Assembly: GCF_004799325.1 (NCBI RefSeq)
Contig: NZ_SSMD01000008.1
Location: forward strand, 62,001 to 126,000
Direction: 5' to 3'
Length of the DNA stretch: 64,000 bases
Source of the DNA: Thalassobius vesicularis
GTDB lineage: Bacteria > Pseudomonadota > Alphaproteobacteria > Rhodobacterales > Rhodobacteraceae
Both the position numbers and the translations under genes were made by a program. Each line of letters starts with the position of its first letter. Position 1 is the stretch's first letter. The notes beneath the pieces are model-generated. The model saw only the letters and a list, made by a program, of their open reading frames with translations, searched no databases and had not been told where the DNA came from. This document shows, piece by piece, positions 29,472 through 51,828 of this stretch.

Positions 29472-29487
29472 TCGAACAGTCATTAGA
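29472..29487. promoter_or_regulatory. Degenerate TCTAAC-N4-GTTAGA operator
   Basis: TCGAACAGTCATTAGA matches the locus palindrome in 10 of 12 conserved positions. It lies 24 bases before the CoA-transferase start and overlaps a plausible -10 (TTAGAA, 29483-29488) downstream of TTGCTA. See the exact copies at 31935, 48151 and 51812. Confidence 0.45.
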
Positions 29488-29511
29488 AAATTAGCAAAAT
29501 CGAAAGTGCAG

Positions 29512-30723
29512 ATGTCTGGCCCCCTTGATCAACTGAAGATTATAGAACTTGGTCACGTAATTGCCGGACCACTTGCGGCAGCTTTACTCTCGGATTTTGG
29601 TGCAGATGTCATCAAGATCGAAGCCCCCAACCGGACGGATATGATGCGCGACCTTGGACCCAAGGCAGAGGATGGGGTGGGCGTCTGGTGGAAGACTTTG
29701 GGCCGCAACAAGAAAACACTAGGCCTGGACTGGAAGTCCGACGAGGGCCGGGACATCCTGCGCAGGTTGGTTGAAGATGCCGACGTGCTGATCGAAAATT
29801 TCCGACCGGGTGTGCTGGAACGTGCCGGTGTTGGGCCAGACGTCTTGCACGATTGGAACCCGGACTTGGTTGTCTTGCGGGTTTCAGGTTACGGACAGGA
29901 CGGTCCGATGCGCGACGTGCCAGCGTTTGGGCGTGCTGCGGAGGCCATGAGTGGATTAGCGCATCTGACCGGTTTTCCCGACGGGCCGCCGATGCACCCC
30001 GGCTTTCCGGCGGCCGACAGCACGACAGGGCTGATGGGCGCTTTGGGAATCATGATCGCGCTATTTGCTCGCGAAAAGGGCATTGCACGCGGTCAGGTCG
30101 TCGATCTTGCGGTGTTCGAGGCGTTGCTTCGGTTGATGGACTATCCTGTTCCCGCATTGACGGGCGCGAACCTCTCGCCGCGGCGCAATGGGCTGCGCCA
30201 GCCGATGGACTTTGCTCCGGGGGGGATGTTCCGAACGTCCGATGGGGTGTGGCTGACCGTTTCCGCAGGGAGCGCGGAAACCGCGCACCGACTGTTGCGG
30301 GCAGTCGGCGGGGACGCCCTTGCCGATGATTCGCGGTTTGCGACACTCGGCGAGATGTCGCAGCACATGACGGTGGTCTTTGACGCGATCAATGATTTCG
30401 TCACGCAGCACACGGCTAAGGAAGTGGAGGCGGTATTCGCCCGCCATGATGCCGTTGCCTCGCGTGTGTTGAGTGTCGAGGAAATCGCGACGAACGAGCA
30501 GATACGCCATCGCGGGGATATCGTGTCGGTCGCTGGCGAACAGACTCAGGTCATTGGTCCGGTCCCTCATCTCAGCGCGACGCCCGGTCAGCTTCGTTGG
30601 CTGGGACGACCGCCTGGCGCAGACAGCCAAAGCATTCTGCGTGATCTTGGTTTTGACGATGAGCGGATCGCTGCCCTATGTGAGGCTGGGCTCGTAAGAT
30701 TGGAAAGAGGGCGCGCGCTATGA
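29512..30723 (+). CDS. CaiB/BaiF type III CoA-transferase
   Basis: A 403-residue protein of the formyl-CoA transferase family. Typical segments are 'IIELGHVIAGPLAAALLSDFGADVIKIEAP', 'LGRNKKTLGLDWKSDEGRDIL', 'VSGYGQDGPMRD' and the catalytic Asp region 'FPAADSTTGLMGALG'. It moves CoA between carboxylic acids. ATG at 29512 is chosen as it matches the family N-terminus; the frame is open from 29443. The stop overlaps the acyl-CoA dehydrogenase start (ATGA). It is one of five such proteins in the window. Confidence 0.92.
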   Translation: MSGPLDQLKIIELGHVIAGPLAAALLSDFGADVIKIEAPNRTDMMRDLGPKAEDGVGVWWKTLGRNKKTLGLDWKSDEGRDILRRLVEDADVLIENFRPGVLERAGVGPDVLHDWNPDLVVLRVSGYGQDGPMRDVPAFGRAAEAMSGLAHLTGFPDGPPMHPGFPAADSTTGLMGALGIMIALFAREKGIARGQVVDLAVFEALLRLMDYPVPALTGANLSPRRNGLRQPMDFAPGGMFRTSDGVWLTVSAGSAETAHRLLRAVGGDALADDSRFATLGEMSQHMTVVFDAINDFVTQHTAKEVEAVFARHDAVASRVLSVEEIATNEQIRHRGDIVSVAGEQTQVIGPVPHLSATPGQLRWLGRPPGADSQSILRDLGFDDERIAALCEAGLVRLERGRAL

Positions 30724-31886
30724 CATTTCGATTGACCGCCGACCAACAAGAGATTCGCGACCAGGTTCTGCGGATTTGCGCAAGGTTCGACGACGACTAT
30801 TGGCTGGATCGGGATCGCAACGGTGGTTTTCCCCATGAACTGCACAGGGCAATGGCCGATGGCGGCTGGCTGGGTATCGCCATGCCAGAAGCTGTCGGCG
30901 GCGCGGGTCTGGGGATCACCGAAGCGACCATCATGATGCAGGCAATTGCCGAGTCGGGGGCCGGCGCAAGCGGAGCCTCGGCCATCCACATGAACATTTT
31001 CGGGCTCAACCCGGTGGTGAAGTTTGGGACCGATGAGCAGCGCGCGCGTATGCTTGGCCCTCTAATAGCAGGCGATGAAAAGGCCTGTTTCGCCGTAACC
31101 GAACCGACGACCGGGTTGGATACCACAAAGCTGAAGACCATGGCGGTGCGGCAGGGGGACAGATATGTCGTGCACGGACAAAAAGTCTGGATTTCTACCG
31201 CGCAGGTGGCAGACAAGATGTTGCTTCTGGCCAGAACAACGCGGCTTGAGGATGTGAGCAGCCCGACCGAAGGGCTGAGCCTATTCTATACAGATCTCGA
31301 CCGAAATTTCGTTGACGTGCGAGAGATCGAAAAGATGGGTCGAAAGGCTGTCGATTCGAACGAAGTCTTCATCGATGGATTGCCGATTCCGGCTGAGGAC
31401 CTGATCGGGGAGGAGGGCAAAGGCTTTAGGCAAATTTTGCACGGGTTGAATCCCGAACGCATCCTGGTGGCCGGTGAATGCATCGGTATTGCGCGCAACG
31501 CACTGGCGCGAGCGGCGCATTATGCAAACGAACGTGTGATTTTTGACCGCCCGATCGGCCAAAATCAGGGTGTTCAGCATCCACTCGCCAAAGCCTGGGC
31601 GCGAGTGGAATCTGCCAATCTCATGGTGATGCACGCTGCAGCCCTCTACGATGCGGGAGAACCCTGCGGCGTCGAGGCGAACGCCGCCAAGCTTTTGGCC
31701 GCCGACGCCGCGGTCGAGGCGACCGAAGCCGCGCAAATTACGTTTGGCGGATTCGGATATGCTAAGGAATATCACGTGGAGCGACTGGTACGTGAAGCTC
31801 TGCTGTTCCGCATCGTACCGGTGACACCGCAGATGCTTCTGTCGTTCATAGCAGAAAAAGCCCTTGGACTTCCAAAGTCTTACTGA
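30720..31886 (+). CDS. Acyl-CoA dehydrogenase
   Basis: A 388-residue flavoenzyme. It shows the FAD/substrate motifs 'KACFAVTEPTTGLDTTKLKT', 'RYVVHGQKVWISTAQ' and 'GFRQILHGLNPERILVAGECIG' (the Glu of ERIL is the probable base) and the C-terminal 'QITFGGFGYAKEYHVERLVREA'. It introduces a double bond alpha-beta to the CoA thioester and passes electrons to ETF. It forms a two-gene unit with the preceding CoA-transferase (4-base overlap). Confidence 0.93.
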   Translation: MTFRLTADQQEIRDQVLRICARFDDDYWLDRDRNGGFPHELHRAMADGGWLGIAMPEAVGGAGLGITEATIMMQAIAESGAGASGASAIHMNIFGLNPVVKFGTDEQRARMLGPLIAGDEKACFAVTEPTTGLDTTKLKTMAVRQGDRYVVHGQKVWISTAQVADKMLLLARTTRLEDVSSPTEGLSLFYTDLDRNFVDVREIEKMGRKAVDSNEVFIDGLPIPAEDLIGEEGKGFRQILHGLNPERILVAGECIGIARNALARAAHYANERVIFDRPIGQNQGVQHPLAKAWARVESANLMVMHAAALYDAGEPCGVEANAAKLLAADAAVEATEAAQITFGGFGYAKEYHVERLVREALLFRIVPVTPQMLLSFIAEKALGLPKSY

Positions 31887-31923
31887 TCGGAGATAACGGG
31901 CGGGGCTGGTGGGAAAAGTTGTC

Positions 31924-31952
31924 TTGACCATTTTTCTAACGCCCGTTAGATT
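31924..31952 (+). promoter_or_regulatory. Promoter with exact TCTAAC-N4-GTTAGA operator (importer operon)
   Basis: TCTAACGCCCGTTAGA at 31935-31950 is an exact copy of the locus palindrome. It sits between TTGACC (31924-31929) and overlaps the -10 TTAGAT (31946-31951), 16 bp apart, so a bound protein would block RNA polymerase. It is 42 bases before the SDR start of the importer operon. Confidence 0.7.
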
Positions 31953-31991: not shown

Positions 31992-32846
31992 ATGAATAAG
32001 ACGCAGTTTGGGTCTTCGAGGGAGGACCTATCAAAACGTGCAACCGTTTACGCAAGCGGTTTATTCACCGGCAAAGTCGTTGTGGTGACCGGGGCCGGAG
32101 GCGGATTGGGGCTGGCAATTGCGACCTTGTTCGCAAGGCTCGGGGCCAATCTGGCGATCAATGGACGCAACGAAGAGAAACTGGCTTTGGCCAAGGAGTT
32201 CCTTGAAAGTTTCGGGGGCGAAGTTTTCGCTGTGCCTATGACCATCCGGGAGCCTGAGCAGGTCGAGGATTTTGTCGCCAAGACGAACCAGGAGTTCGGG
32301 GCGATTGACGTATTGGTGAACAATGCTGGGGGTCAGTTTCCGCAAGCAGCGTTGGAGTTTAGTCCAAAGGGCTGGAATGCGGTCATAGACACCAACCTGA
32401 ACGGCACGTGGTGGATGATGCAATCCACGGCGCGCCACTGGGTTGCCAACAAGCAATCGGGCTCCATCGTCAACATCGTGGCCGATATCTGGCGCGGCAT
32501 GCCCGGCATCGCGCATACCTGTGCGGCCCGGGCAGGGGTAGTTTACCTGTCCAAGTCGGTTGCGGTGGAGTGGGCCCCGCACGGTATCCGAGTGAACTGC
32601 GTGGCGCCGGGTTGCTGCGAAAGCAACGGTTTCGGGAACTACCCTCCGGAGGGTTCTGCGACCTTTCAGGACTCCAACCCGATGCGGCACGCCGGGGACG
32701 AATGGGATGTCGCTGAAGGGGTTGTCTATATGGCGGCGAATTCAGGGAAATTCGTAACCGGAGAAGTTCTGAACATCGACGGTGGGCAGCAATTGTGGGG
32801 GGATCCATGGCCAACGGGGCGGCCGGACTACTTCCGGATTACCTGA
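31992..32846 (+). CDS. Short-chain dehydrogenase/reductase (PECR/dienoyl-CoA reductase-like)
   Basis: A 284-residue SDR. It has the cofactor motif 'VVVTGAGGGLGLAIATLF', NNAGG, and 'GSIVNIVAD'. The usual YxxxK is changed: the region reads 'HTCAARAGVVYLSKSVAVEWAPHG', as in enoyl- and dienoyl-CoA reductase-type SDRs, where Tyr lies in AGVxY. The end 'GEVLNIDGGQQLWG' is typical. GAGGAGG precedes the ATG at 31992. It heads the importer operon, so an acyl-CoA or 3-hydroxyacyl-CoA substrate is likely. Confidence 0.87.
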   Translation: MNKTQFGSSREDLSKRATVYASGLFTGKVVVVTGAGGGLGLAIATLFARLGANLAINGRNEEKLALAKEFLESFGGEVFAVPMTIREPEQVEDFVAKTNQEFGAIDVLVNNAGGQFPQAALEFSPKGWNAVIDTNLNGTWWMMQSTARHWVANKQSGSIVNIVADIWRGMPGIAHTCAARAGVVYLSKSVAVEWAPHGIRVNCVAPGCCESNGFGNYPPEGSATFQDSNPMRHAGDEWDVAEGVVYMAANSGKFVTGEVLNIDGGQQLWGDPWPTGRPDYFRIT

Positions 32847-32883
32847 TGTTGGCCGTGAACCTTAGGGGGACAATGATATCTAG

Positions 32884-33690
32884 ATGACGACAAGGATTAA
32901 CACAGCAATCGGAGCCGATGATGGGGCGATACTGGAGTGCAGCGGGGTCGAACGACGGTTCGGCGGCATCGTCGCTGTCACCGGTGTTGACCTCGTTATT
33001 CGACAAGGGGAAATCTTTGGACTTGTCGGTCCGAATGGCAGCGGCAAGACAACGCTAACAAACGCAATTACCGGATTTTACCCGCCAAACGAGGGCAGGG
33101 TCCGGCTGGCAGGAAACGACATTACGGGTACGGCGCCTCACAAGGTTGCCAAGCTCGGCGTTGCCAGAACGTTCCAAAATCTTGCCCTGTTCAACGGGAT
33201 GAGCGTTCTGGACAACATCCTGCTCGGGCGGCACATCCACATGAGCCCAGGCGTTTTGCGTACGGCGCTATATTGGTGGGCAGCACAGCGTGAAGAAATC
33301 GAGAACCGTAAAATCGTCGAGGAGGTGATCGAGTTTCTACAGCTCGAGAGCATTCGGCATGAGTTGGTCGATGGTCTTCCGATCGGGTTGAAAAAGCGGG
33401 TCGAGCTGGCGCGGGCATTGGTGGCCGAGCCACAGATGCTGATTCTCGATGAACCGATGGCCGGCATGAACCAGGAAGAGAAAGGGTATATGTCCCGTTT
33501 CATTCTGGATGCCCGTGCCGAACGCGGCGTCAGCGTTCTGCTGATCGAACACCATATGGATGTCATCACCGGCATTTGTGATCGGATGCTGGCACTGAAT
33601 TACGGTGAAATGATCGCCAGTGGCATCCCCAAGGAGGTTGTGAAGGACCCGCGGGTCATCGAGGCATATATCGGAGGGTCGCATGACTGA
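32884..33690 (+). CDS. livG: Branched-chain-type ABC importer ATPase (LivG-like)
   Basis: A 268-residue ATPase. Walker A is GPNGSGKTT, Q-loop 'GVARTFQNLALF', Walker B 'MLILDEPMAGM' and the H-loop His is in 'LLIEHHMDVI'. The signature is unusual, 'LPIGLKKRVELARAL' instead of LSGGQ or LSYGQ. It energises the transporter with the LivH/M permeases encoded two genes downstream. Its end overlaps the acyl-CoA synthetase gene by 8 bases. The imported substrate is probably a carboxylic acid rather than an amino acid, given the catabolic neighbours. Confidence 0.9.
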   Translation: MTTRINTAIGADDGAILECSGVERRFGGIVAVTGVDLVIRQGEIFGLVGPNGSGKTTLTNAITGFYPPNEGRVRLAGNDITGTAPHKVAKLGVARTFQNLALFNGMSVLDNILLGRHIHMSPGVLRTALYWWAAQREEIENRKIVEEVIEFLQLESIRHELVDGLPIGLKKRVELARALVAEPQMLILDEPMAGMNQEEKGYMSRFILDARAERGVSVLLIEHHMDVITGICDRMLALNYGEMIASGIPKEVVKDPRVIEAYIGGSHD

Positions 33691-35602
33691 TTTTACGAAG
33701 AACCGGTCTTCAGGCGGCGAAACGATTGGTGCACTTCTGGCGAAGAACGCGTCGCTCCACGGAAAGGATATCGCCCTTCGCGAAAAAGAGCGTGGGATAT
33801 GGAAAGAAACCACTTGGGCGGAATACGCCCAAGAGGTGGTGGCCTGTGCGGCTGGACTTGAAAAAATCGGCGTGAAGCCTGGCAAAGCAGTGCTTGTTCT
33901 GGGCGATAACCGTGCGCGGTTGTATGGTGGCATGCTGGCTGTTTCGTTGCTTGGTGCCTACGCCATGCCCGCTTATCCGGGCGCAACTCTTGAGGAACTG
34001 CGGCACTTTCTTGGCGAAGTCGAGATCGTCGCGGCCATCGCGGAAGATCAGGAACAGGTTGACAAGATCCTGGAACTGAAGGACACGGGCGCCGAGGGCA
34101 TCGACCACATCATTTATGATGAAGCGCGCGGTCTTGGCTTCTACGAGGTTGAAGGGCTGATGTCCTGGGATCACCTGATCGAAGTTGGTCAGCACGATCT
34201 GAACGAAACCCCGGGCCTGCGTGAGGAACTGCTTAATCGTGCGAAGCCGGAAGATCCGGCCATTTTTCTGCACTCCTCCGGAACGACGGGCGCGCCGAAG
34301 GGCATCGTACTGAGTCAGAAGAACGTTCTTGCTGCTGCTCGGAATGGACATGCGGCGGGTGCCTTCGACGAAAATGAGGAGATCCTCGCGTACTTGCCGA
34401 TGGCCTGGGTGGGAGACTACGCCATAACCGTTGCCGCGGCACTCCTTTGGCGTTTCACCGTGAATGTGCCTGAGCGCCAGGAAACGGTCGTGCGCGACAT
34501 GCGCGAGATCGCTCCGACCTTCTATCTGGCGGCGCCGAGAAGCTGGGACCAAATGCTGACGACAATCCAGGTGGGTATCGAGAATTCGACCCCTTTCAAG
34601 AAATGGCTGTATCATTTCTTCATGGATCGGGCCATCGCCGCTGAGACACGCAAGCTGAACGGAAAAAGCGGTGGTATATTGGAGCCTTTGGGCCGACTTT
34701 TGGGTGAGGCAATTGTTTTCGGTCCGATCAAGGACCAGTTCGGAATGAGCCGCCTCAAGAACGCGTTCACCGGCGGCGAAGCGATCGGCGAAGACACCTT
34801 TGTTTTCTACCGAGCCTTGGGAATCAAATTGCGCCAACTCTACGGCCAAACCGAAAACAGCGCGATCAATGCAATTCAGTCTCCGGGTGAAGTGCGCCTT
34901 CATACGGTTGGCAAACCCGCGCCCGGCGTCGAGGTGACCATCGCCGAGGACGGGGAGATCTTGGTACGCTCGGACAGCGTATTCGAAGGGTACTTCAACA
35001 AACCCGAAGCGACCGCCGAAGCCCTTGAGGGCGGGTGGCTGCATACAGGTGATGCCGGGTATTTGGAGGAAGATGGACACCTGGTTGTTCTGGGGCGCGT
35101 CTCCGAGGTCATGCATACGGCCGGAGGCGAGCGGTTTGTGCCAAACTACATCGAGAACCGGTTGAAATTCAGCCCTTATATTAAGGATGCTGCCGTAATC
35201 GGCGCCGGGCTTGACGAATTGACGGCTATGGTCTGCGTGGATTTCGAAGCCGTTGGCCACTGGGCAGAGGTGAACGGCGTGCCCTATGTGTCTTATGCCG
35301 ATCTTTCTCAGCGTGAAGAGGTCGCGACGTTGCTTCGCGAGGCCTTCCAACGGGTCAACAAGGCCGTCACCGAACCATTGCGCCTGCAACGCTTTGTCAG
35401 TCTGCCGAAAGAATTCGACCCGGACGATGGCGAAATCACGCGAACCCGAAAACTGCGGCGGAAGGTCGTTCAGGAACGCTATGCCGACGTGATCGCAGCG
35501 CTCTACGACGGTTCAAAAGAGGTCCATGTAAGCGCGCAGGTGACTTACGAGACCGGGGAAGTAGGGAAGGTCGAAAGAAGCCTTCCCATCAGGGAGGTAT
35601 AA
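33683..35602 (+). CDS. AMP-forming acyl-CoA synthetase embedded in importer operon
   Basis: A 639-residue long-chain-type ligase. It contains the P-loop 'IFLHSSGTTGAPKGIVLS', the 'YGQTENSAIN' motif, the 'GWLHTGDAGYLEEDGHLVVLGR' hinge motif and the C-terminal 'ITRTRKLRRKVV' that bears the catalytic Lys region. It activates a carboxylic acid to the CoA thioester with ATP. It lies between livG and livH and overlaps livG by 8 bases, so uptake and activation are coupled (vectorial acylation), which is inference from layout. Confidence 0.92.
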   Translation: MTDFTKNRSSGGETIGALLAKNASLHGKDIALREKERGIWKETTWAEYAQEVVACAAGLEKIGVKPGKAVLVLGDNRARLYGGMLAVSLLGAYAMPAYPGATLEELRHFLGEVEIVAAIAEDQEQVDKILELKDTGAEGIDHIIYDEARGLGFYEVEGLMSWDHLIEVGQHDLNETPGLREELLNRAKPEDPAIFLHSSGTTGAPKGIVLSQKNVLAAARNGHAAGAFDENEEILAYLPMAWVGDYAITVAAALLWRFTVNVPERQETVVRDMREIAPTFYLAAPRSWDQMLTTIQVGIENSTPFKKWLYHFFMDRAIAAETRKLNGKSGGILEPLGRLLGEAIVFGPIKDQFGMSRLKNAFTGGEAIGEDTFVFYRALGIKLRQLYGQTENSAINAIQSPGEVRLHTVGKPAPGVEVTIAEDGEILVRSDSVFEGYFNKPEATAEALEGGWLHTGDAGYLEEDGHLVVLGRVSEVMHTAGGERFVPNYIENRLKFSPYIKDAAVIGAGLDELTAMVCVDFEAVGHWAEVNGVPYVSYADLSQREEVATLLREAFQRVNKAVTEPLRLQRFVSLPKEFDPDDGEITRTRKLRRKVVQERYADVIAALYDGSKEVHVSAQVTYETGEVGKVERSLPIREV

Positions 35603-36490
35603 ATGGACTGGGTCTTTCTATCAGAGCTTGCGATCAACGGAGCCTTGACGGGTCTGCTGTACTCGCTATTCGCCATCGGCCTTGTGCTGATTTACAAGGC
35701 ATCTTCGGTGCCCAATCTGGCGCAGGGCGGGTTGACCATGGTCGGGGCCTATGTGGTCCTGGCGCTGGCACGCGACGTGGGTTTACCCTTGTGGCTGGCC
35801 ATCCCTCTGGCTGCGGTTGTCATGTTCGGCCTTGGGTTCGGCATTGAGCGTGTTGCTCTGCGCCGTCTCGCAGGTCGGCCGGTTGTCATGATCTTGATGC
35901 TGACACTCGGCCTCGACATTTTCCTGCGGGGTACAACGCTTGCGATCTGGGGCGGGACGTCGCGTTCGATGGAATTGGGCGTCAGCTATGATCCGCTGTT
36001 CCTGGGCGACATATTCATCAGCCGCATCCATCTGGTTGGTGCCGGTGTTGCGCTCGTCTTGTTTGTCGCCTTCATGCTGTTTTTCCGAACCCGGACCGGG
36101 ATCAAGTTGCGGGCGATCGCGGATGATTACATGGCTTCGTGGTCGGTCGGCATCTCGGTTGAACGCGGAGTTGGCTTTTCTTGGGCGCTGGCATCCGTTG
36201 TTGCCGTCGCCGCAGGCGTTATATGGGGCGAGATTCAGGGTGTCGATCAGGCGCTGTCGCTGTTGCTTCTCAAAGGTCTGACGGTTGCCGTTCTCGGTGG
36301 TCTCGACAGTATCCTTGGCGCCGTGATCGCGGGCATCATCCTGGGCGTCGTCGAAAACGTTGGCGCTGATTTCCTCGATCCGCTTGTCGGAGGCGGAAGC
36401 CGTGAGCTTATCGTCGCTGCCGTGCTCATTCTTACGGTCATGATCCGTCCGCACGGGCTGTTCGGTCGTCACGACATCGAAAGGGTGTAA
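35603..36490 (+). CDS. livH: Branched-chain-type ABC permease (LivH-like)
   Basis: A 295-residue permease with about eight transmembrane helices. The N-terminal 'LAINGALTGLLYSLFAIGLVLIYKASSVPNLAQGG' and the conserved 'LLKGLTVAVLGGLDSILGAVIAGIILGVVENV' mark the family. It starts directly at the synthetase stop (AGGGAGGTATAA upstream). It forms the membrane channel with LivM. Confidence 0.92.
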   Translation: MDWVFLSELAINGALTGLLYSLFAIGLVLIYKASSVPNLAQGGLTMVGAYVVLALARDVGLPLWLAIPLAAVVMFGLGFGIERVALRRLAGRPVVMILMLTLGLDIFLRGTTLAIWGGTSRSMELGVSYDPLFLGDIFISRIHLVGAGVALVLFVAFMLFFRTRTGIKLRAIADDYMASWSVGISVERGVGFSWALASVVAVAAGVIWGEIQGVDQALSLLLLKGLTVAVLGGLDSILGAVIAGIILGVVENVGADFLDPLVGGGSRELIVAAVLILTVMIRPHGLFGRHDIERV

Positions 36491-36493
36491 GGG

Positions 36494-37567: not shown

Positions 37568-37577
37568 GGGAATGCCG

Positions 37578-38387: not shown

Positions 38388-38420
38388 GGTACTAATCAGA
38401 AGTTGTTCAGGGAGGAACAA

Positions 38421-41007: not shown

Positions 41008-41013
41008 GACTGG

Positions 41014-42657: not shown

Positions 42658-42699
42658 CTCGGTTGAAACCTTATCGCAAAACTCAAGGAGCCCACGCCA

Positions 42700-44526: not shown

Positions 44527-44555
44527 TTGTCGAGAAAAAAAACACTTGTTAGATT
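44527..44555 (+). promoter_or_regulatory. Promoter with degenerate locus operator (half-site)
   Basis: AAAAACACTTGTTAGA (44538-44553) keeps the right half GTTAGA and the inner AAC of the TCTAAC-N4-GTTAGA palindrome. TTGTCG (44527-44532) and TAGATT (44550-44555) form a 17-bp-spaced promoter that the half-site overlaps, as at the exact sites. It precedes the acyl-CoA dehydrogenase by 37 bases. Confidence 0.45.
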
Positions 44556-44590: not shown

Positions 44591-45748
44591 ATGTCTCTGA
44601 TCAAGAACTCCCCGAGTTGGGCAGTGGATGAACACAAGATGTTCGCCGATAGTACACGCAGGCTTTTCGATGCAGAGATGGCTCCGAAGATTGAAAAATG
44701 GGCGGAGCAGGGAATTGTTGACCGCGACTTCTGGAAAACAGTCGGTCAGCAGGGTGTCATGGGTGGCTCGATTGCCGAAGAATATGGTGGTTTCGGTGGC
44801 GGCATCGGGTTCGACGCGATTACCGTCTACGAGCAGGGGCGCACCGGTGATACGGGTTGGGGCTATGGGATTCAGTCCATCGTAATCCATTATCTCAACG
44901 CATATGGCAGTGAGGAACAGAAGAAAAAGTGGTTGCCGAAACTGGTCAGCGGCGACAGCGTTGCGGCGATTGCCATGACCGAGCCTGGAACGGGCTCTGA
45001 CCTCCAGAACGTACAAACCTATGCGGAAAAGGATGGCAACCACTACAAGATCAACGGTTCGAAGATCTTTATCACAAACGGGCACACGGCGGATCTCGTT
45101 GTTATCGTGGCAAAGACCGATCGCAACGCCGGCGCTAAGGGCGTTTCATTGATCGTTCTGGAAACCGAGGGCACCGAGGGCTTTCGCCGGGGACGGAACC
45201 TGAAGAAACTGGGTATGAAAGGTTCGGATACTGCTGAGCTGTTCTTCGAGGATGTGCGCGTGCCCACGGCGAACCTGCTTGGTCCGGAAGAGGGGCAGGG
45301 GTTCTACCAGCTGATGAAGCAGCTGCCTTGGGAGCGGCTGATGATCGGCATTACCGCCCTCGGTTTTATTGATTTTGCGATCGATGAAACGGTGAAATAT
45401 GTTCAGGACCGCAAGGCATTTGGAAGCCGGATCATGGACTTCCAGAATACACGCTTCAAACTGGCGGAATGCAAAACCAAGGCCGAATTGCTACGTTCTT
45501 TCGTAAATGACGGGATCGCGCGTCTTGAAGCGGGCGAACTTGATGCGGCCACGGCTTCGATGGCGAAATGGTGGGGCAGCCAGACGCAGAACGAGGTCAT
45601 GCATGAATGCCTGCAACTTCACGGCGGTTACGGTTTCATGATGGAATACCCCATCGCGCGACTTTATGCCGACAGCAGGGTCCAGATGATCTATGGCGGC
45701 ACCAACGAGATCATGAAGGAACTGATCGCACGTTCGCTGGATGTTTGA
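44591..45748 (+). CDS. Acyl-CoA dehydrogenase
   Basis: A 385-residue dehydrogenase with 'AAIAMTEPGTGSDLQNVQTYA', 'YKINGSKIFITNGHTADLVVI', 'QGFYQLMKQLPWERLMIGITALG' (Glu of WERL is the likely base) and the end 'QLHGGYGFMMEYPIARLYADSRVQMIYGGTNEIMKELIARSL' region. It is a stand-alone unit: an intrinsic terminator lies before it and a convergent CoA-transferase gene after it. ATAGGAATAAAAC is the ribosome site. Confidence 0.94.
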   Translation: MSLIKNSPSWAVDEHKMFADSTRRLFDAEMAPKIEKWAEQGIVDRDFWKTVGQQGVMGGSIAEEYGGFGGGIGFDAITVYEQGRTGDTGWGYGIQSIVIHYLNAYGSEEQKKKWLPKLVSGDSVAAIAMTEPGTGSDLQNVQTYAEKDGNHYKINGSKIFITNGHTADLVVIVAKTDRNAGAKGVSLIVLETEGTEGFRRGRNLKKLGMKGSDTAELFFEDVRVPTANLLGPEEGQGFYQLMKQLPWERLMIGITALGFIDFAIDETVKYVQDRKAFGSRIMDFQNTRFKLAECKTKAELLRSFVNDGIARLEAGELDAATASMAKWWGSQTQNEVMHECLQLHGGYGFMMEYPIARLYADSRVQMIYGGTNEIMKELIARSLDV

Positions 45749-45771: not shown

Positions 45772-46950
45772 CTAGTCGCCCCCCGGACCGATGATCTCGT
45801 CGTTGTGTTCGCCCAGTCCGGGGGCGGGGCGCAGGTCATGCCGCGCCGGTGTCGCCGAGAATCGAATGGGCGGGCGTGTCGTCCAGATCGCACCTTCGGT
45901 CGGGTGATCAATCCGTTGAAAGAACCCGGTTGCGGCAAGATGGGGATCGTTCGGCAAATCTGACAGGTTGCGCACTGGCATGGCGGGTATGTCGGCCTGC
46001 TCCATGAGGTCAAGCCACTCATCTGTGGTCCGGGTCAGCGCAATCTGCGCCACCATATCGTATACTGCGCCGATGTTGCGGCTTCGGGCATCCATGTCAG
46101 TGACCCAGACATGGTCGATCATGTCGTCGCGCCCGACCGCCTGAAAGAACCGCGCCCATTGCACGTTGGTGTAGGGCAGAATGGTGATGTAGCCATCTGC
46201 GGTCTGAACCGGACGCCGGTGCGGAACCAGCATGCGGGCATAGCCGAAATCCTGCGGAGTCTCCTCGAAGGTGGCGCCATCCATGTGTTCGGCCAGCAGG
46301 AAGGCGGCCAGCGTCTCAAACATCGGAACTTCGACATGCTGGGCCTGTCCCGTACGCTCGCGGTGGAACAGGGCGCCCATCACGGCATAGGCGGCGGTCA
46401 CGCCGCCAAGCTTGTCGGCCAGAATTGTCGGGGCATAAGCGGGCGGTGCCTCGGGGTCGCGCAAGGTTGCCAGGCTGGCCAATCCCGACACCGACTGGAC
46501 GGAATCGTCGAATGCTGGCTTGGCGGCATAGGGCCCGTCCTGTCCGAAACCGGTGGCGGATACCGTGATCAGGTTCGGGTTTTCCTGGCGCAGGGTTTCG
46601 GGATCCAAAGACAATCTGGCAAGCGCCGCAGGCCGGATGCTCGAAATCATCACATCGGCATCGATGAGCAGTTTGCGCAACTGATCGAGACCGGTTTGTG
46701 TTTTGAGGTCGATTACGACACTGCGCTTGTTACGGTTGGTCCCCAGAAAAGCGGCCCCCATCAGCTTGTTGCGCGATGGCTGGACCTGGCGAAGAAGATC
46801 GCCCTCGGGGCCTTCCACCTTGATCACATCGGCCCCCAGATCGCCCAGCATCTGCGTCGCCAAAGGTCCGAAAACTACAGAAGTCAGATCGACGATCTTC
46901 ACGTCTTGAAGGATCGCCGGATTGTTCTCATCGGTCATTTGATTGTCCAC
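45772..46950 (-). CDS. CaiB/BaiF type III CoA-transferase
   Basis: A 392-residue CoA-transferase with 'IVDLTSVVFGPLATQMLGDLGADVIKVEGPEGD', 'TNRNKRSVVIDLKTQTG', 'VSATGFGQDGPYAAK' and the catalytic Asp in 'TILADKLGGVTAAYAVMGAL'. The frame starts with GTG at 46950 (GTAGG seven bases upstream); an ATG at 46938 is the alternative. It lies 18 bases after the stop of the next CoA-transferase on the same strand, so two related enzymes are co-expressed. Confidence 0.91.
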   Translation of the reverse strand: MDNQMTDENNPAILQDVKIVDLTSVVFGPLATQMLGDLGADVIKVEGPEGDLLRQVQPSRNKLMGAAFLGTNRNKRSVVIDLKTQTGLDQLRKLLIDADVMISSIRPAALARLSLDPETLRQENPNLITVSATGFGQDGPYAAKPAFDDSVQSVSGLASLATLRDPEAPPAYAPTILADKLGGVTAAYAVMGALFHRERTGQAQHVEVPMFETLAAFLLAEHMDGATFEETPQDFGYARMLVPHRRPVQTADGYITILPYTNVQWARFFQAVGRDDMIDHVWVTDMDARSRNIGAVYDMVAQIALTRTTDEWLDLMEQADIPAMPVRNLSDLPNDPHLAATGFFQRIDHPTEGAIWTTRPPIRFSATPARHDLRPAPGLGEHNDEIIGPGGD

Positions 46951-46968
46951 TTAGTTGCCTACCGTTTT

Positions 46969-48114
46969 TTATGAACAACGGCCGAACTCGGCGCGAAGGG
47001 CCTTGCCTTGCGCATCGAAGGCCGGGCAGGGGCCCAGTGCCGTTTCGCCGAGGCTGCGCCGGATCGGGGGGGTCGGGACGTTGATTTCACCGGAAGGCGT
47101 GCGAATTACGGACCGGTCAAGCTGGGGGTGACCGGACAGGGTCGCCACGTCGTTCACCGCGCCCGAGGCAATGCCCGCAGCGTCAAGCCGCTTCAGCATC
47201 TCGGCGCGGTCATGCGAGGCGAACACGTCCTTGATGAGAACTTCGAGCGCGGGTTTGTTTTCAATTCGCGACGTGTTGTCATGGAACCGGGGGTCGGTTG
47301 CCAAAGCCGCATCGCCCAGTATGTGTTCACAGAACCGTTGCCATTCGCCGTTGTGTTGCACGGTAATGACGACAAGCTGACCGTCCTTGCATTCATAGGC
47401 CCCGTACGGGCAAATGACCGTGTGGTTCAGTCCGACACGAGGTGTCGGCTTGCCAAGGTAATCGTGATACAGCAGTGGAACCGACATCCAGTCGGCCATC
47501 ACATCAAACATTGCCACGGAAACGCCGCTGCCCTTGCCGGTGCGATCACGCCCGACAAGTGCTTCGCAGATTCCAGCATGGGCTGTCATACCGGTGGCGA
47601 TATCGCAGACCGACACGCCCACCCGTCCTGGTCCGTCGGGTGTACCGGTCACTGATGCCAGACCGCTCTCGCATTGCACCAGAAGGTCATAGGCCTTGGC
47701 GTTGCGCATCGGGCCGTCTTCGCCATATCCGGTGATGTCGCAGGTCACTAGACGCGGGAAGCTCTCTCGCAGACTCGCGGAATCGAGCCCCAGCTTGGCC
47801 AGCGCGCCCGGCAGCAGGTTCTGAATAAACACATCTGCGTTTTCCAGCATCCTGAGCAGGATTTCACGGTCTTCGTCGGCTTTAATGTCCAAGGCGACCG
47901 ATTCTTTGCCTCGGTTCAGCCATGTGAAATAGGCGCTTTCACCGTTGGCGGCGGTATCGTAGGCGCGGGCGAAATCGCCGGCTCCCTTGCGTTCGATCTT
48001 GATCACACGCGCGCCGGCATCGGCCAGCCGCGAGGAGCAAAAAGGCGCGGCGACTGCCTGTTCCAGCGCAACGACGAGTTTGCCGGAAAGGGGGGCTAAA
48101 TCTGAACCTGGCAT
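46969..48114 (-). CDS. CaiB/BaiF type III CoA-transferase
   Basis: A 381-residue CoA-transferase with 'VVALEQAVAAPFCSSRLADAGARVIKIERKGAGDFAR', 'WLNRGKESVALDIKADEDREIL', 'CDITGYGEDGPMRNAK' and the catalytic Asp in 'VSVCDIATGMTAHAGI'. This sequence type (VVALEQAVAAPFCSSRLADAGARVIKIER) is common for succinyl- or mesaconyl-type transferases, though the donor cannot be told. The divergent gap to the DUF35 gene carries the exact locus operator. Confidence 0.92.
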   Translation of the reverse strand: MPGSDLAPLSGKLVVALEQAVAAPFCSSRLADAGARVIKIERKGAGDFARAYDTAANGESAYFTWLNRGKESVALDIKADEDREILLRMLENADVFIQNLLPGALAKLGLDSASLRESFPRLVTCDITGYGEDGPMRNAKAYDLLVQCESGLASVTGTPDGPGRVGVSVCDIATGMTAHAGICEALVGRDRTGKGSGVSVAMFDVMADWMSVPLLYHDYLGKPTPRVGLNHTVICPYGAYECKDGQLVVITVQHNGEWQRFCEHILGDAALATDPRFHDNTSRIENKPALEVLIKDVFASHDRAEMLKRLDAAGIASGAVNDVATLSGHPQLDRSVIRTPSGEINVPTPPIRRSLGETALGPCPAFDAQGKALRAEFGRCS

Positions 48115-48141: not shown

Positions 48142-48174
48142 TTGACTAAATCTAACAATTGTTAGAAACATAAT
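48142..48174. promoter_or_regulatory. Divergent promoter with exact palindromic operator TCTAACAATTGTTAGA
   Basis: TCTAACAATTGTTAGA at 48151-48166 is a perfect 16-bp palindrome and an exact copy of the locus motif. Leftward, TTGATT and TAGATT (17 bp apart) form a promoter for the CoA-transferase pair and enclose the site. Rightward, TTGACT (48142-48147) could serve the DUF35-thiolase operon, with a poorer -10. One protein bound here could shut both directions. Confidence 0.72.
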
Positions 48175-48218: not shown

Positions 48219-48596
48219 GTGCAGGACGCCAAACGACCAGACCAGTTTTTCCAACGCGCGCTGGCAGAGGGAGAGATCCTGCTGCCCAAGTGCGACGACT
48301 GCGGGGGATATCACTTTTTCCCGAGAGTCCTGTGTCCCCATTGTCATGGCAGCGCGATTTCTTGGAAGAAGGCTAGCGGCAAGGGACGGGTCCACACCAC
48401 AACAGTTGTGCGCCGAAAGCCCGAACGGGGCGGCGATTACAACGTATGCGTCGTCGAGCTGGATGAGGGTGTCCGGATGATGAGCCGGGTCGAGGGCATT
48501 GCTCCGGGTGAGGTCGCCATCGACATGCCGGTAACCGCCTTCGTGGGCGAGGCCGAGGGTGTTCCGGCCGTGCTTTTCAAGCCGTCGGAGGGATAA
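48219..48596 (+). CDS. DUF35 zinc-ribbon/OB-fold acyl-CoA-associated protein
   Basis: A 125-residue protein. The N-terminal rubredoxin-like zinc ribbon has CDDC and CPHC pairs ('LPKCDDCGGYHFFPRVLCPHCHG'), followed by an OB-fold (for example 'GKGRVHTTTVVRRKPE...'). DUF35 proteins act as partners of thiolase-fold enzymes, such as the ChsH2 DUF35 domain with the Ltp2 aldolase. The next gene is just such a thiolase-fold protein, three bases away. The start is GTG at 48219 with AAGGAGAACGCCG upstream. Confidence 0.9.
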   Translation: MQDAKRPDQFFQRALAEGEILLPKCDDCGGYHFFPRVLCPHCHGSAISWKKASGKGRVHTTTVVRRKPERGGDYNVCVVELDEGVRMMSRVEGIAPGEVAIDMPVTAFVGEAEGVPAVLFKPSEG

Positions 48597-48599
48597 GCC

Positions 48600-49751
48600 A
48601 TGACCACTGAACTTCGGGGGAAATCCGCCATCGTAGGTACCGGTCATGCCGGTTTCGGAGAAGCCCATGGCCTGACGGCCTATGATGTCATGGCGCAATC
48701 TGCGCTTGCGGCGCTTGGCGATGCCGGGCTGAAACTGTCCGACGTCGACGGGCTGTTTTGCACCATGATGGAAGACAGCATGCCGGCGCTTATGGCGGCG
48801 GAGTATCTGGGCATCCAGCCCCGTTTCATTGATGGCACGATGTCGGGCGGTTCGTCTTTCGTAAACTACCTGACGTCCGCGACCATGGCGCTGGACGCCG
48901 GTCTGTGTGATGTCGCGCTGATTGTTTATGGCTCCAACCAGCGCACCGCGTCGGGCAGACTCGTGACCGCTTCACGTCCGCCGGCCTACGAGGCGCCGTA
49001 TAATCCGCGCTATCCGATCTCGGCCTATGCGATGGCGGCGGCGCGGCACATGCATGAATATGGCACCACCCGCGAACAGCTGGCCGACGTGGCCGTTGCT
49101 GCGCGGGCCTGGGCGCAGCACAACCCCGAAGCGTTCGAGCGCGGCCCGCTGACCCGCGAGGACGTGTTGGGTGCGCGCATGGTGGGCGATCCATTGACCG
49201 TGCGCGACTGTTGTCTTGTCACCGACGGCGGCGGCGCGATCGTAATGGTCCGCGCGGACCGCGCCCGGGATTTCCCGAAGGCGCCTGTCTATGTGCTGGG
49301 CAGTGCTGCGGCAAGCTCGCACCGGCAGATTTCGCAGATGAAGGATTTCACCGTGACCGCAGCCCGCGACTCGGGCGCGCGCGCCTTTGCGACGGCCGGC
49401 GTGACCCCTGCGGATATCCAGGCGGTCGAGCTCTATGATGCCTTCACCATCAATACCATCCTGTTTCTTGAAGATCTGGGGTTCTGCGCCAAGGGCGATG
49501 GCGGGGCCTTTGTCCAGGGCGGGCGCATCGCGCCTGGCGGGGCCTTGCCGGTGAACACGAATGGCGGAGGCCTGTCCTGTGTGCACCCCGGGATGTACGG
49601 TATCTTCACAGTGATCGAGGCTGCTCGTCAGATCCGTGGCGACGCGCCGGGCATTCAGTTGAAGGATATTGATCTGGCGCTGGCGCATGGCAACGGCGGT
49701 GTGCTGTCCAGTCAGGTCACGGCCATACTTGGATCGCAAAACACGCTCTGA
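48600..49751 (+). CDS. Thiolase-fold protein without nucleophilic Cys (Ltp2-like aldolase candidate)
   Basis: A 383-residue thiolase-superfamily protein. Where thiolases have the Cys nucleophile (NxxCASG) it reads 'IDGTMSGGSSFVNYL', with no Cys. It keeps 'AVELYDAFTINTILFLEDLG' and 'VNTNGGGLSCVHPGMYGIFTVIEAARQIRG', whose Tyr residues match positions used by Ltp2-type steroid side-chain aldolases (family knowledge). Next to a DUF35 protein and a MaoC hydratase, a retro-aldol cleavage of a beta-hydroxyacyl-CoA is more likely than thiolysis. The substrate is unknown. Confidence 0.85.
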   Translation: MTTELRGKSAIVGTGHAGFGEAHGLTAYDVMAQSALAALGDAGLKLSDVDGLFCTMMEDSMPALMAAEYLGIQPRFIDGTMSGGSSFVNYLTSATMALDAGLCDVALIVYGSNQRTASGRLVTASRPPAYEAPYNPRYPISAYAMAAARHMHEYGTTREQLADVAVAARAWAQHNPEAFERGPLTREDVLGARMVGDPLTVRDCCLVTDGGGAIVMVRADRARDFPKAPVYVLGSAAASSHRQISQMKDFTVTAARDSGARAFATAGVTPADIQAVELYDAFTINTILFLEDLGFCAKGDGGAFVQGGRIAPGGALPVNTNGGGLSCVHPGMYGIFTVIEAARQIRGDAPGIQLKDIDLALAHGNGGVLSSQVTAILGSQNTL

Positions 49752-49774
49752 CGGCAACTAAGGGAGGAAAGATC

Positions 49775-50632
49775 ATGCCACTGGATTTCGAAGCACTTTC
49801 GAATTGGGATTTCGAAGAGATCAAGCAGACTCTGACCGAGCGGGATACCATCCTTTACGCACTCGGGCTGGGGTTCGGCGAAGATCCGACAGACAAGAAA
49901 GAACTGGCCTTTGTCTATGAGGACGGTCTGAAGGCGGTTCCCTCGATGGCGGTCATTTTGGGGTATCCCGGCTTCTGGCTGCGCGATCCCAAGACCGGCG
50001 TAAACTGGCAAAAAGTGCTGCACGGAGAACAGTGGCTCGACATCTACAAGCCGCTGCCGACACATGGCCGGATTGTCGGCCGCAGCCAGATCGACTTCAT
50101 CTCGGACAAGGGCGAGGGCAAGGGCGCTGTGATCTATCAAAGCCGCGAGATCATCGACGCGGACAGCGGCGACAAGCTGGCACGCGTCGCGATGTCGGCC
50201 TTCGCCCGGGGCGACGGCGGATTCGGCGGCGAGAACAGGCCCGGCCCGACGCCGGCGGTGCTGCCGGACCGGGTGCCCGATCACATATGTGATATCGAGA
50301 CGCTTCCGCGCCAGGCGCTGATCTACCGGCTCAGCGGCGACATGAACCCGCTGCATGCCGACCCCGATGTCGCGCGGTCGGTCGGGTTCGACCGCCCGAT
50401 CCTGCACGGTTTGGCGACCTATGGTCTGGCCGCCCGGGCGATTCTCAAGACGTTGCTGGACTATGATTCTGCCCGGCTTGTCGGTCTGGATGTTCGGTTC
50501 TCGGCTCCGGTCTATCCCGGCGAAACCGTGCGGTTCGAAATCTGGGAAGAGGACGGCGAGGCCCGGTTTCGAGCGTCTATTCCTGCACGCGACGTGGTTG
50601 TTCTGAACAACGGCGCGGCGCGCTTTGCCTGA
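49775..50632 (+). CDS. MaoC-type (R)-enoyl-CoA hydratase 2
   Basis: A 285-residue double hot-dog hydratase. The C-terminal half has the hydratase-2 motif 'YRLSGDMNPLHADPDVARSVGF' with Asp and His catalytic residues, followed by 'PILHGLATYGLAARAIL'. The N-terminal half is the inactive repeat. The closest functional relatives act on bulky enoyl-CoAs such as steroid or bile-acid side chains. AGGGAGGAAAGATC precedes the start. It is placed between the Ltp-like and CoA-transferase genes and overlaps the latter's upstream region. Confidence 0.92.
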   Translation: MPLDFEALSNWDFEEIKQTLTERDTILYALGLGFGEDPTDKKELAFVYEDGLKAVPSMAVILGYPGFWLRDPKTGVNWQKVLHGEQWLDIYKPLPTHGRIVGRSQIDFISDKGEGKGAVIYQSREIIDADSGDKLARVAMSAFARGDGGFGGENRPGPTPAVLPDRVPDHICDIETLPRQALIYRLSGDMNPLHADPDVARSVGFDRPILHGLATYGLAARAILKTLLDYDSARLVGLDVRFSAPVYPGETVRFEIWEEDGEARFRASIPARDVVVLNNGAARFA

Positions 50633-50642
50633 GGCAGTGAAG

Positions 50643-51779
50643 ATGGCTCAACCGCTCAAGGATATCCTGGTGCTGGATTTCAGCACACTTCTTCCCGGTC
50701 CGATGGCGACGCTCATGCTGTCCGAGGCTGGCGCCGAAGTGATCAAGTTCGAACGGCCCGGAGCCGGCGAGGACGCGCGCCACACGGAGCCAAAGATCGA
50801 CGGAGAGAGCATCGGATTTGCTGTGTTGAACCACGGCAAGCGATCGGTGGCCATCGACCTCAAGTCAAGGGGCGCAGTGGAACGTCTGCGCCCCTTGATC
50901 GAGAAGGCCGATGTTCTGGTAGAGCAGTTTCGTCCCGGCGTGATGGACCGGCTGGGGCTTGGTTATGAAGCGGTGCGAAAGATCAATCCCGGTCTCATCT
51001 ATTGTTCGATCACCGGCTATGGCCAGACCGGACCAAAGGCCAGCGCCGCCGGCCACGATCTCAACTACGTCGGTGATGCGGGTATCCTGTCGCTCAGTCG
51101 CGGACCGGATGACCAGCCAACAGCCCCGTTCGGGCTGGTCGCCGATATCGGAGGCGGAACCTATCCTGCGGTGATGAATATCCTGCTGGCCCTGATTGCG
51201 CGGCAGGCAAGCGGGCAGGGGACGCATCTGGATATCGCAATGGCCGAGGGGGCGTTCGCCTTTGCCTATTGGGCCCATGCCGAAGGTGTGATTGCCGGGC
51301 AGAACATCGAAAGCGGTGGCAGCCGTCTGACGGGTGGCCTGGCCCGGTATCGGCTTTATACGGCTGCGGACGGGCGTCAGATCGCCGTCGGCGCGTTGGA
51401 AGAAAAGTTCTGGCAGTCGTTCTGCGATGTCATTGGTTTGCCTGTGGCCCTTCGCGATGACTGGTCCGATCCAAATGCCTGTGCCGCAGAGGTTGCACGT
51501 CGTCTGAGGGAACACCCCTCGACCCATTGGGAGCCTTTGCTGGCTGCGGCAGATTGCTGCTGTTCGGTCGTGAAGACGCCCGCCGAGGCGGCGCGTGACC
51601 CGCATTTCAAAGCGCGTGACGTGTTCGGGCGGACCGTAAAAATCTCCGGCCGGGACGCGCCCGCTTTGCCGCTGCCAATTGCCCCGGAGTTCCGTTCTTC
51701 CGGAAATTCGGTCGGAGTTGCAGCCACTCTGGGCGAAGACAATCCGCGTTATGGCGTGGACCAACCGAAAACAGAGTAA
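50643..51779 (+). CDS. CaiB/BaiF type III CoA-transferase
   Basis: A 378-residue CoA-transferase (alpha-methylacyl-CoA racemase-like subgroup). Segments: 'ILVLDFSTLLPGPMATLMLSEAGAEVIKFERPGAGEDAR', 'LNHGKRSVAIDLKSRGAVERL', 'SITGYGQTGPKASAAGHDLNYVGDAGIL' and 'LVADIGGGTYPAVMNILLAL' with the catalytic Asp. The 'GHDLNY...G' run is typical of racemases as well as transferases, so racemisation of an alpha-methyl acyl-CoA is possible. The start at 50643 has TGAGG upstream. Confidence 0.9.
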   Translation: MAQPLKDILVLDFSTLLPGPMATLMLSEAGAEVIKFERPGAGEDARHTEPKIDGESIGFAVLNHGKRSVAIDLKSRGAVERLRPLIEKADVLVEQFRPGVMDRLGLGYEAVRKINPGLIYCSITGYGQTGPKASAAGHDLNYVGDAGILSLSRGPDDQPTAPFGLVADIGGGTYPAVMNILLALIARQASGQGTHLDIAMAEGAFAFAYWAHAEGVIAGQNIESGGSRLTGGLARYRLYTAADGRQIAVGALEEKFWQSFCDVIGLPVALRDDWSDPNACAAEVARRLREHPSTHWEPLLAAADCCCSVVKTPAEAARDPHFKARDVFGRTVKISGRDAPALPLPIAPEFRSSGNSVGVAATLGEDNPRYGVDQPKTE

Positions 51780-51799
51780 ATCCCGTTGACGGGCAGGAT

Positions 51800-51828
51800 T
51801 TGAATCGGTAATCTAACATTTGTTAGAA
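51800..51828 (+). promoter_or_regulatory. Promoter with exact TCTAAC-N4-GTTAGA operator (transglutaminase-led operon)
   Basis: TCTAACATTTGTTAGA at 51812-51827 is the third exact copy of the motif. TTGAAT (51800-51805) and TTAGAA (51823-51828), 17 bp apart, form a promoter that the palindrome spans. It lies 14 bases before the start of the transglutaminase-like gene. Confidence 0.7.

What the first reader, a model, noticed from the sequence alone, without database searches (positions are those of the whole stretch)
29472..51827. A 16-bp palindrome TCTAAC-N4-GTTAGA marks a single regulon across the catabolic locus
Exact copies occur at 31935-31950, 48151-48166 and 51812-51827; degenerate copies lie at 29472-29487 (10 of 12 positions) and 44538-44553 (right half intact). 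Each one overlaps the -10 element (TTAGAT, TAGATT or TTAGAA) and sits in front of a different operon: SDR/Liv importer, CoA-transferase pair plus DUF35 operon, transglutaminase-led operon, CoA-transferase/dehydrogenase, and a lone dehydrogenase. This is the geometry of a repressor that responds to an acyl-CoA. The two TetR regulators in the window have different operators, so the controlling regulator is elsewhere. I know of no described regulator with this exact box.
Basis: partly seen in the sequence, partly recalled or inferred. Interest (0 to 1): 0.78.

Follow-up and report, generated by a model that had tools for sequence, protein, structure and literature searches.

The report
Operator of a duplicated TetR repressor
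A short mirrored DNA sequence sits in front of most operons of a large catabolic gene cluster in marine bacteria, and it is very probably the landing site of an unusual repressor that carries two DNA-reading heads in one chain, encoded just outside the window.

Summary
TCTAAC-N4-GTTAGA occurs exactly at the three stated places. In the whole 3.79-Mb genome all 8 copies with at most one mismatch lie on one contig, within 78 kb. They head 16 putative transcription units, 69 called genes. The missing regulator is 32 kb beyond the window: a 466-aa protein of two tandem TetR units, with an exact box ending 9 bp before its start codon. Of 295 family genomes, the 9 with this protein have 4-6 exact boxes; the 286 others have 0 or 1. 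Of 80 fetched double-TetR loci, 78 have the box (at most 1 mismatch) within 250 bp upstream. The halves are sister copies with the same recognition helix. The model matches Mce3R over both halves, but Mce3R reads a non-palindrome and is described as a fusion of distinct TetR types. Best reading: a single-chain repressor reading a palindrome and controlling a plasmid-mobile pathway, probably for isoprenoid-like acids. Binding, repression and acyl-CoA induction are inferred, not shown.

The parts
29472..29487 (.). Operator 1 (2 mismatches, 16.4 bits) before CoA-transferase III / acyl-CoA dehydrogenase operon
   Evidence: exact box at the orthologous place in G189 and G246
29512..31886 (+). Operon under operator 1: CoA-transferase family III, acyl-CoA dehydrogenase
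31935..31950 (.). Operator 2 (exact, 26.9 bits); TTGACC starts 11 bp before it, a TAGATT -10-like hexamer overlaps its right half
   Evidence: exact in G153 and G189 too
31992..44384 (+). Operon under operator 2: SDR, AMP-ligase, LivGHMF-type importer with two binding proteins, two enoyl-CoA hydratases, EtfBA (Pfam run on 7 of the 12 genes; the rest named by eye)
44538..44553 (.). Operator 3 (degenerate, right half intact, 22.0 bits)
   Evidence: 2-mismatch copy in G204 by spacing; none at 2 or fewer mismatches in G153/G189
44591..45748 (+). Lone acyl-CoA dehydrogenase under operator 3 (named by eye, no Pfam run)
45772..48114 (-). Two CoA-transferase III genes, divergent arm of operator 4 (named by eye, no Pfam run)
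48151..48166 (.). Operator 4 (exact, 31.7 bits), shared by divergent operons
   Evidence: exact in G153 and G189 and beside the DUF35-like gene in G131
48219..51779 (+). Operon under operator 4: DUF35 protein (by eye), thiolase, MaoC/hydratase-2, CoA-transferase (by eye)
51812..51827 (.). Operator 5 (exact, 35.1 bits)
   Evidence: exact in G153 and G189
51842..57328 (+). Operon under operator 5: unknown 239-aa protein, MaoC-like, two acyl-CoA dehydrogenases and an enoyl-CoA hydratase (by eye), PaaK-like ligase (below the curated cut-off)
57554..63593 (.). Genes of the cluster without a detected box: PaaE-like reductase, acyl-CoA dehydrogenase (by eye), thiolase-like, hydratase (by eye) on -, CoA-transferase (by eye) on +
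63619..64000 (-). SDR gene, last gene of the operon under operator 6, cut by the window edge. The rest of the regulon lies right of the window: operators at C8 133439, 146409, 157977, 164411, 171529, 171611, 173859 (window coordinates 71439, 84409, 95977, 102411, 109529, 109611, 111859); double TetR gene C8:158002-159402; single TetR gene C8:173901-174530

Best explanation
The box is the operator of a TetR-family repressor made of two tandem TetR units in one 466-aa chain (gene at C8:158002-159402, 32 kb right of the window). Both halves carry the same recognition helix (AGS-[IV]-YYHF), so one chain can fold back into a pseudo-dimer and read both halves of the 16-bp palindrome. Bound, it lies between the -35 and -10 elements (at some sites of two divergent promoters at once) and blocks about 16 transcription units, its own included. 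A CoA thioester of the pathway (most likely a methyl-branched, isoprenoid-like acyl-CoA) releases it. Shown by computation: box-gene co-occurrence, own-promoter box, conservation, internal duplication, matching helices, predicted fold. Inferred: binding, repression, the ligand, the substrate class.
For: All 8 boxes with at most 1 mismatch are in one locus. 12 of 12 matrix sites are intergenic where 8% of the DNA is. 9 of 9 family genomes with the double TetR have 4-6 exact boxes; 286 without have 0 (277) or 1 (9). In a class-wide sample of 289, the 2 with the gene have 5 and 6 exact boxes; of the 287 others one has 2 and 13 have 1. Box within 250 bp upstream of the matched start in 78 of 80 double-TetR loci, 60 exact; 151 boxes against 1 reversed-control match in 997 kb. 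Upstream columns anchored on the start codon, not on the box: 1.95 bits per box-arm column, 1.05 elsewhere, 33 distinct rows. The regulator diverges to 53-63% identity in distant loci while the box stays. Two TetR_N and two TetR_C_24 domains. Halves 88/214 identical and sisters, 100/99 support. Model pLDDT 82.4, pTM 0.81; best fold match Mce3R over 418 columns, TM 0.63/0.74; single-unit neighbours include FadR with stearoyl-CoA, AibR with isovaleryl-CoA and KstR2. AtuA, biotin carboxylase, HMG-CoA-lyase and OYE-type genes in the locus.
Against: No binding or expression data. A second, single TetR in the cluster (C8:173901-174530) has the same helix and a variant box, so it might share the sites. 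The double TetR's start codon is uncertain: the annotation of a plasmid relative begins 54 codons later. Two of 80 double-TetR loci lack a box within 250 bp: one contig starts inside the gene; in the other (Acidocella) an exact box lies 2447 bp upstream, just before the genes leading into the TetR gene. The loci are not independent (plasmid-borne in part, many near-identical; 53 distinct promoter sequences). Four genes-worth of the cluster (59-62) and gene 58 have no box. The same 16-mer also stands before an unrelated TetR gene in five other genomes. One fold model without an assembly prediction does not prove the intramolecular dimer.
Confidence: 0.82

Rival explanations
1. The main reader of the boxes is the single TetR (C8:173901-174530), or both proteins share all boxes, the double TetR being a modulator.
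For: Same subfamily and recognition helix; its own promoter has a CTAAC-N4-GTTAG box in 9 of 9 loci, from 8 genomes; it is present in 8 of the 9 family genomes that have the double TetR.
Against: Its own box lacks the outer T:A pair in 9 of 9 loci (CCTAAC or GCTAAC ... GTTAGT or GTTAGG), unlike the exact regulon boxes. G061 has 4 exact boxes and a double TetR but no single-TetR match at E 1e-30 (that genome is 91% complete and only 5 of its 11 candidates were scored). G031 has a 54%-identical single TetR, no double TetR and no exact box.
Confidence: 0.12
2. The double TetR binds the box but activates, or acts through another step than blocking RNA polymerase.
For: No expression data were found; some TetR proteins activate (recalled).
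Against: At many sites the box lies in the -35/-10 spacer and over the -10, a position for blocking; it also serves divergent promoters and stands at the regulator's own promoter.
Confidence: 0.06
3. The palindrome is a repeated element (REP-like, uptake signal, terminator hairpin) or chance, not an operator.
For: Exact single copies also occur in 9 of 286 family genomes without the gene: 5 before an unrelated TetR-like gene, 1 in a fragment of this same cluster, 1 in a longer hairpin, 2 unexplained.
Against: Not dispersed: 0 copies with at most 1 mismatch outside the locus, and multiplicity tracks one regulator. N4 and flanks vary more than the arms.
Confidence: 0.01

Closest known systems
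Mce3R (double TetR repressor of Mycobacterium tuberculosis; PMC11667970, abstract and passages seen)
   Same: Two TetR units in one chain; the predicted model matches its cryo-EM chain over both halves; linked to lipid and cholesterol metabolism.
   Different: Mce3R is described as a fusion of two distinct TetR types and binds 25-bp non-palindromic sites. Here the halves are sister copies with the same recognition helix and the box is a perfect palindrome. The paper cites 204 predicted double TetRs in Actinomycetes; the 80 loci fetched here are Alphaproteobacteria apart from one Marinobacter.
KstR (PMC1995591, abstract and passages seen)
   Same: TetR repressor of a large lipid-degradation regulon, autoregulated; palindrome with TnnAAC half-sites that overlaps the -10 region.
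   Different: Single-unit dimer; 14-bp motif TnnAACnnGTTnnA, 2-bp centre against 4 bp here; actinobacterial.
AtuR / RdmA (Pseudomonas; PMC9973270, passages seen)
   Same: TetR repressors beside an atuA gene, controlling acyclic terpene or DSF (branched acid) catabolism; inverted-repeat operators just upstream of -10.
   Different: Single TetR unit (RdmA 206 aa); operator AGCAAGCGCTTGG / CCAAGCGCTTGCT, unrelated in sequence.
FadR, AibR, PfmR, KstR2 (single-unit TetR proteins in the PDB)
   Same: Fold neighbours of one half; FadR and AibR entries hold acyl-CoA ligands.
   Different: One TetR unit per chain; their operators were not compared here.
Engineered single-chain Tet transactivators (PMC1797012, search listing only)
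   Same: Two TetR units in one chain.
   Different: Man-made; here it would be natural.

Membership tests
TetR family regulators | N-terminal TetR_N helix-turn-helix and helical TetR C-terminal domain | tested here: met
   PF00440 x2 and PF17932 x2 above cut-off
TetR family regulators | Short palindromic operator at own promoter | tested here: met
   Box within 250 bp upstream in 78 of 80 loci; binding itself not tested
TetR family regulators | Ligand-relieved repression | not testable with these tools
   needs bench work
Mce3R-like double TetR | Two TetR units in one chain folding together | tested here: met
   model vs 9b7y_A, 418 columns, TM 0.63/0.74. A model, not a structure
Mce3R-like double TetR | Halves from distinct TetR subgroups | tested here: not met
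   N and C halves are sisters, 100/99 (the tool warns of long branches between some singles and the halves)
Mce3R-like double TetR | Asymmetric, non-palindromic operator | tested here: not met
   perfect palindrome arms in 60 of 80 loci
AtuR | Operator AGCAAGCGCTTGG pair and single TetR unit | tested here: not met
   operator from PMC9973270 differs from the box; the protein is double
KstR | Motif TnnAACnnGTTnnA and single TetR unit | tested here: not met
   half-site fits TnnAAC but the centre is 4 bp, not 2; the protein is double
KstR2 | Single-unit homodimer with its own operator and HIP-CoA ligand | tested here: not met
   architecture differs; operator and ligand not tested

The most novel reading that the evidence does not exclude
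A natural single-chain TetR: an internal duplication turned a homodimeric repressor into one polypeptide that still reads a perfect palindrome, while a single-unit relative in the same cluster kept a variant box differing in the outer base pair, so the two are insulated. If two such chains also pair (as reported for Mce3R), one complex could bridge two of the 12 boxes and loop the 80-kb locus. The whole regulator-operator set travels between genera on plasmids as a self-contained catabolic regulon.
Probability: 0.45. Interest if true: 0.75.

Novelty: new variant of a known kind. Interest (0 to 1): 0.6.

Why it matters
It pairs an uncharacterised regulator with its operator across many genera, and so gives a directly testable regulon of about 69 genes for an undefined marine carbon pathway that moves on plasmids (39 plasmid records carry the regulator, 13 of them typed conjugative). 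It offers a natural contrast to Mce3R for asking how a duplicated TetR keeps, or loses, operator symmetry. A one-gene repressor with a compact palindrome would also be a handy genetic part.

Tried and rejected
Enrichment with up to 3 mismatches in the window: no signal (10 vs 6.9 expected); only exact and near-exact copies and the matrix carry the argument.

AtuR-type operator considered because of the atuA gene: sequence differs. KstR motif compared: same kind of half-site, other spacing. LiuQ operator could not be compared: the 2009 paper is not held. Regulon survey PMC5343134 (passages seen): the TetR regulators named there (FabR, FadP, LiuQ, PsrA, RutR) are others; their motifs were not compared.

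Literature on double TetR proteins: in the rows listed (20 of 148, 12 of 2,837, 25 of 51) I saw only Mce3R and engineered forms; PMC6561031's 'double TetR' is fluorescent foci. Searches for the pathway in roseobacters (12 of 24 listed; 15 of 829) and for regulons (12 of 365) showed no paper on this cluster in the listings. PMC5064897 (passages) describes a strain that has the regulator (L130) and does not hold the word terpene. The substrate therefore remains a guess from gene content.

Only part of the cluster was run through family libraries: searches covered 37 different genes (count), another the two regulators; the other enzymes are named by eye from their first residues. Gene borders come from my own simple caller, not from an annotation. 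The mean information of the box is biased because rows were picked by the box; one search repeats it anchored on the start codon, for the loci beginning ATGGAC. Of 226 loci found only the best 80 were returned and looked at.
Full report
What was checked. The three exact copies and the two degenerate ones are at the stated coordinates. In the whole genome (46 contigs, 3.79 Mb) the pattern occurs at 16 places with up to two mismatches; all 5 exact and all 3 one-mismatch copies are on contig C8 between 93935 and 171626, and of the 8 two-mismatch copies 3 more are in that locus. The backwards-read control pattern has 78. The window is C8:62001-126000, so the locus continues to the right; I fetched it to the contig end and called genes with a simple codon-usage script.

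The full set. A symmetrised matrix from 45 distinct boxes of relatives, run over the 114,776 bases of C8 from the window start, gives 12 sites above 16 bits; the next is 12.0 bits and genic. All 12 are intergenic although 8.0% of the sequence is (binomial 7e-14). Counting co-directional genes behind each site they head 16 putative transcription units with 69 called genes: CoA-transferases, acyl-CoA dehydrogenases, two Liv-type importers, CoA ligases, thiolases, hydratases, biotin-dependent carboxylases, an HMG-CoA-lyase and a citryl-CoA-lyase-like protein, an OYE-type reductase and AtuA (for 37 genes; the others named by eye). Genes 58-62 of the cluster (window 57554-63593) have no detected box. 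The contig ends soon after the last operon and a relative's plasmid continues with more carboxylase genes, so the regulon is probably incomplete here.

The regulator. An exact box ends 9 bp before the start of a 466-aa protein with two TetR_N and two TetR_C_24 domains. Of 295 family genomes, 9 (this one included) hold a full-length relative (E below 1e-140), and these hold 5, 5, 5, 5, 5, 4, 6, 6 and 4 exact boxes; of the other 286, 277 hold none and 9 hold one. Of those nine, G131 is a fragment of this same cluster (box between DUF35-like and CoA-transferase-like genes), five (G001, G167, G173, G250, G266) have the box before an unrelated TetR-like gene, G077 has it in a longer hairpin, and G002 and G115 are unexplained. 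In 289 genomes drawn across the class (this genome included), only this genome and G556 (another family, 88% identity) hold the gene, with 5 and 6 exact boxes; of the other 287, G395 has two and 13 have one. With one mismatch allowed, 30 chosen genomes were compared: the 8 relatives with the gene have 8-13 boxes, the 22 without have 0-3 except G014 with 8 scattered over eight contigs, fewer than its 11 control matches.

Named relatives. The genome-contig scan gave 226 loci, of which the best 80 were fetched: mainly Rhodobacteraceae/Roseobacteraceae, also Hoeflea, Labrenzia, Mesorhizobium, Enterovirga, Bradyrhizobium, Acidocella and one Marinobacter. Within 250 bp upstream of the matched start 60 of 80 have an exact box and 18 one mismatch. 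The two misses are a contig that starts inside the gene and Acidocella, where an exact box lies 2447 bp upstream, just before the genes that lead into the TetR gene. In the 997 kb around these loci there are 151 boxes with at most one mismatch and 1 backwards control. These loci are not independent; 53 own-promoter sequences are distinct. Anchoring 33 distinct upstream regions on the start codon rather than on the box gives 1.95 bits per box-arm column and 1.05 in the rest. In two whole clusters read end to end (G153, G189) boxes recur at the orthologous promoters with different N4 and flanks.

Architecture. The halves align with 88 of 214 identical positions, and both have AGS-[IV]-YYHF in the recognition helix, as has the single TetR of the cluster; most of this stretch is invariant and the rest at least 90% conserved in 31 sequences. 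In a tree of 18 N halves, 18 C halves and 20 single TetRs the halves are sisters (100/99), which points to one internal duplication before the family spread; the tool warns that some long branches meet. The AlphaFold2 model (31-sequence alignment, query one residue different from this genome's protein; pLDDT 82.4, pTM 0.81) has Mce3R (9b7y_A) as top fold match, 418 columns, TM 0.63/0.74; of the 50 rows listed (of 1,009) it is the only one spanning both halves. The others are single-unit proteins, among them FadR with stearoyl-CoA, AibR with isovaleryl-CoA, PfmR and KstR2. This supports an intramolecular pseudo-dimer; assembly was not predicted.

Geometry and mechanism. A 16-bp palindrome with half-sites 10 bp apart suits two TetR heads. 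In three clusters TTGA begins 9-12 bp outside the box in 21 of 70 orientations (31 hits over 47 other positions; all 35 sites with up to 2 mismatches were used and orthologous promoters are not independent), so a spacer of about 17 bp puts the -10 on the far arm of the box; at 31935 this reads TTGACC-N17-TAGATT. At the gene 98/99 promoter of 39 distinct relatives TTGA on the left and CAAG on the right (TTGA of the other strand in most rows) are invariant (rows picked by the box), so one box can block two divergent promoters. At the regulator's own promoter the box ends 9 bp before the conserved ATGGAC start, which suggests a nearly leaderless transcript. The annotated start for a plasmid relative is 54 codons later, which would cut the first helix-turn-helix.

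A second TetR. The single TetR (C8:173901-174530) has in 9 of 9 loci (8 genomes) a box whose arms are CTAAC/GTTAG but whose outer pair is not T:A. More distant single TetRs (11 loci in other genera) sit beside carboxyltransferase, acyl-CoA dehydrogenase or CoA-transferase relatives; 10 of 11 have a box with at most two mismatches within the fetched 1.5 kb upstream, where the backwards control has none, and the eleventh genome has one about 3 kb upstream. So this operator class appears old in the subfamily, and the outer pair may separate the two regulators. This is an inference.

Substrate. AtuA, two to three biotin-dependent carboxylase sets, an HMG-CoA lyase and an OYE-type reductase with many acyl-CoA dehydrogenases point to beta-methyl-branched (isoprenoid-like) acids, by analogy with the Atu pathway (recalled). 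No paper on this cluster was seen in the listings, and no paper holds the six spellings of the box. The held library covers only open-licence papers, and the substrate is at best a 50% guess.

Comparison. KstR reads TnnAACnnGTTnnA, overlapping -10, for a large lipid regulon (PMC1995591, abstract and passages): alike in half-site and position, different in spacing and in being single-unit. Mce3R is alike in architecture, different in origin of its halves and in operator symmetry (PMC11667970, abstract and passages). AtuR is alike in gene context, different in operator.

Mobility. The locus is poorer in G+C (56-61%) than the first 12 kb of the window (65%); the same-genus genome G076 has no exact box and no match to the regulator at E 1e-30; 39 plasmid records carry the regulator, 13 typed conjugative, 4 mobilizable, 22 non-mobilizable.

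Verdict. Observation confirmed; regulon reading supported; regulator identified with high confidence. Binding, sign of regulation and ligand remain to be shown. In checking this report I corrected the box-to-start distance (9, not 10 bp) and the number of genes run through family libraries (37), and added the KstR comparison; the odds did not need to change.

Noticed in passing
L051, L169, L170, L171, L172 (G001, G167, G250, G266, G173): An unrelated TetR-like gene (GYHHGDLR near its start, by eye) divergent from a membrane-protein-like gene has TCTAACATATGTTAGA or TCTAACATAAGTTAGA in its intergenic region: a different regulator that seems to use the same 16-mer.
   Followed up: partly
C8:173859-173874 (window coordinate 111859) and L040-L048: Own-promoter box of the single TetR has a variant outer base pair in all nine loci, which may insulate it from the double TetR.
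   Followed up: partly
L159:6001-8000: A single-TetR relative directly follows the double TetR gene in the same direction; may bear on how the duplication arose.
   Followed up: no
12265-15247: Resolvase-like gene and a 760-aa Tn3-transposase-like gene (by eye) left of the cluster.
   Followed up: no
23308-28763: Two single TetR genes followed by HlyD-like and RND-like efflux genes (by eye), without the box at 3 or fewer mismatches between them.
   Followed up: no
C8:151738-152166 and C8:153538-154263 (window coordinates 89738-90166 and 91538-92263): A MarR-like and an AraC-like regulator also lie inside the cluster (Pfam).
   Followed up: no
NZ_CP045373.1 47731-48969 (L167:20163-21401): Annotated start of the double TetR is 54 codons downstream of the conserved MDSL start and would remove the first helix-turn-helix; probably a mis-called start.
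   Followed up: partly
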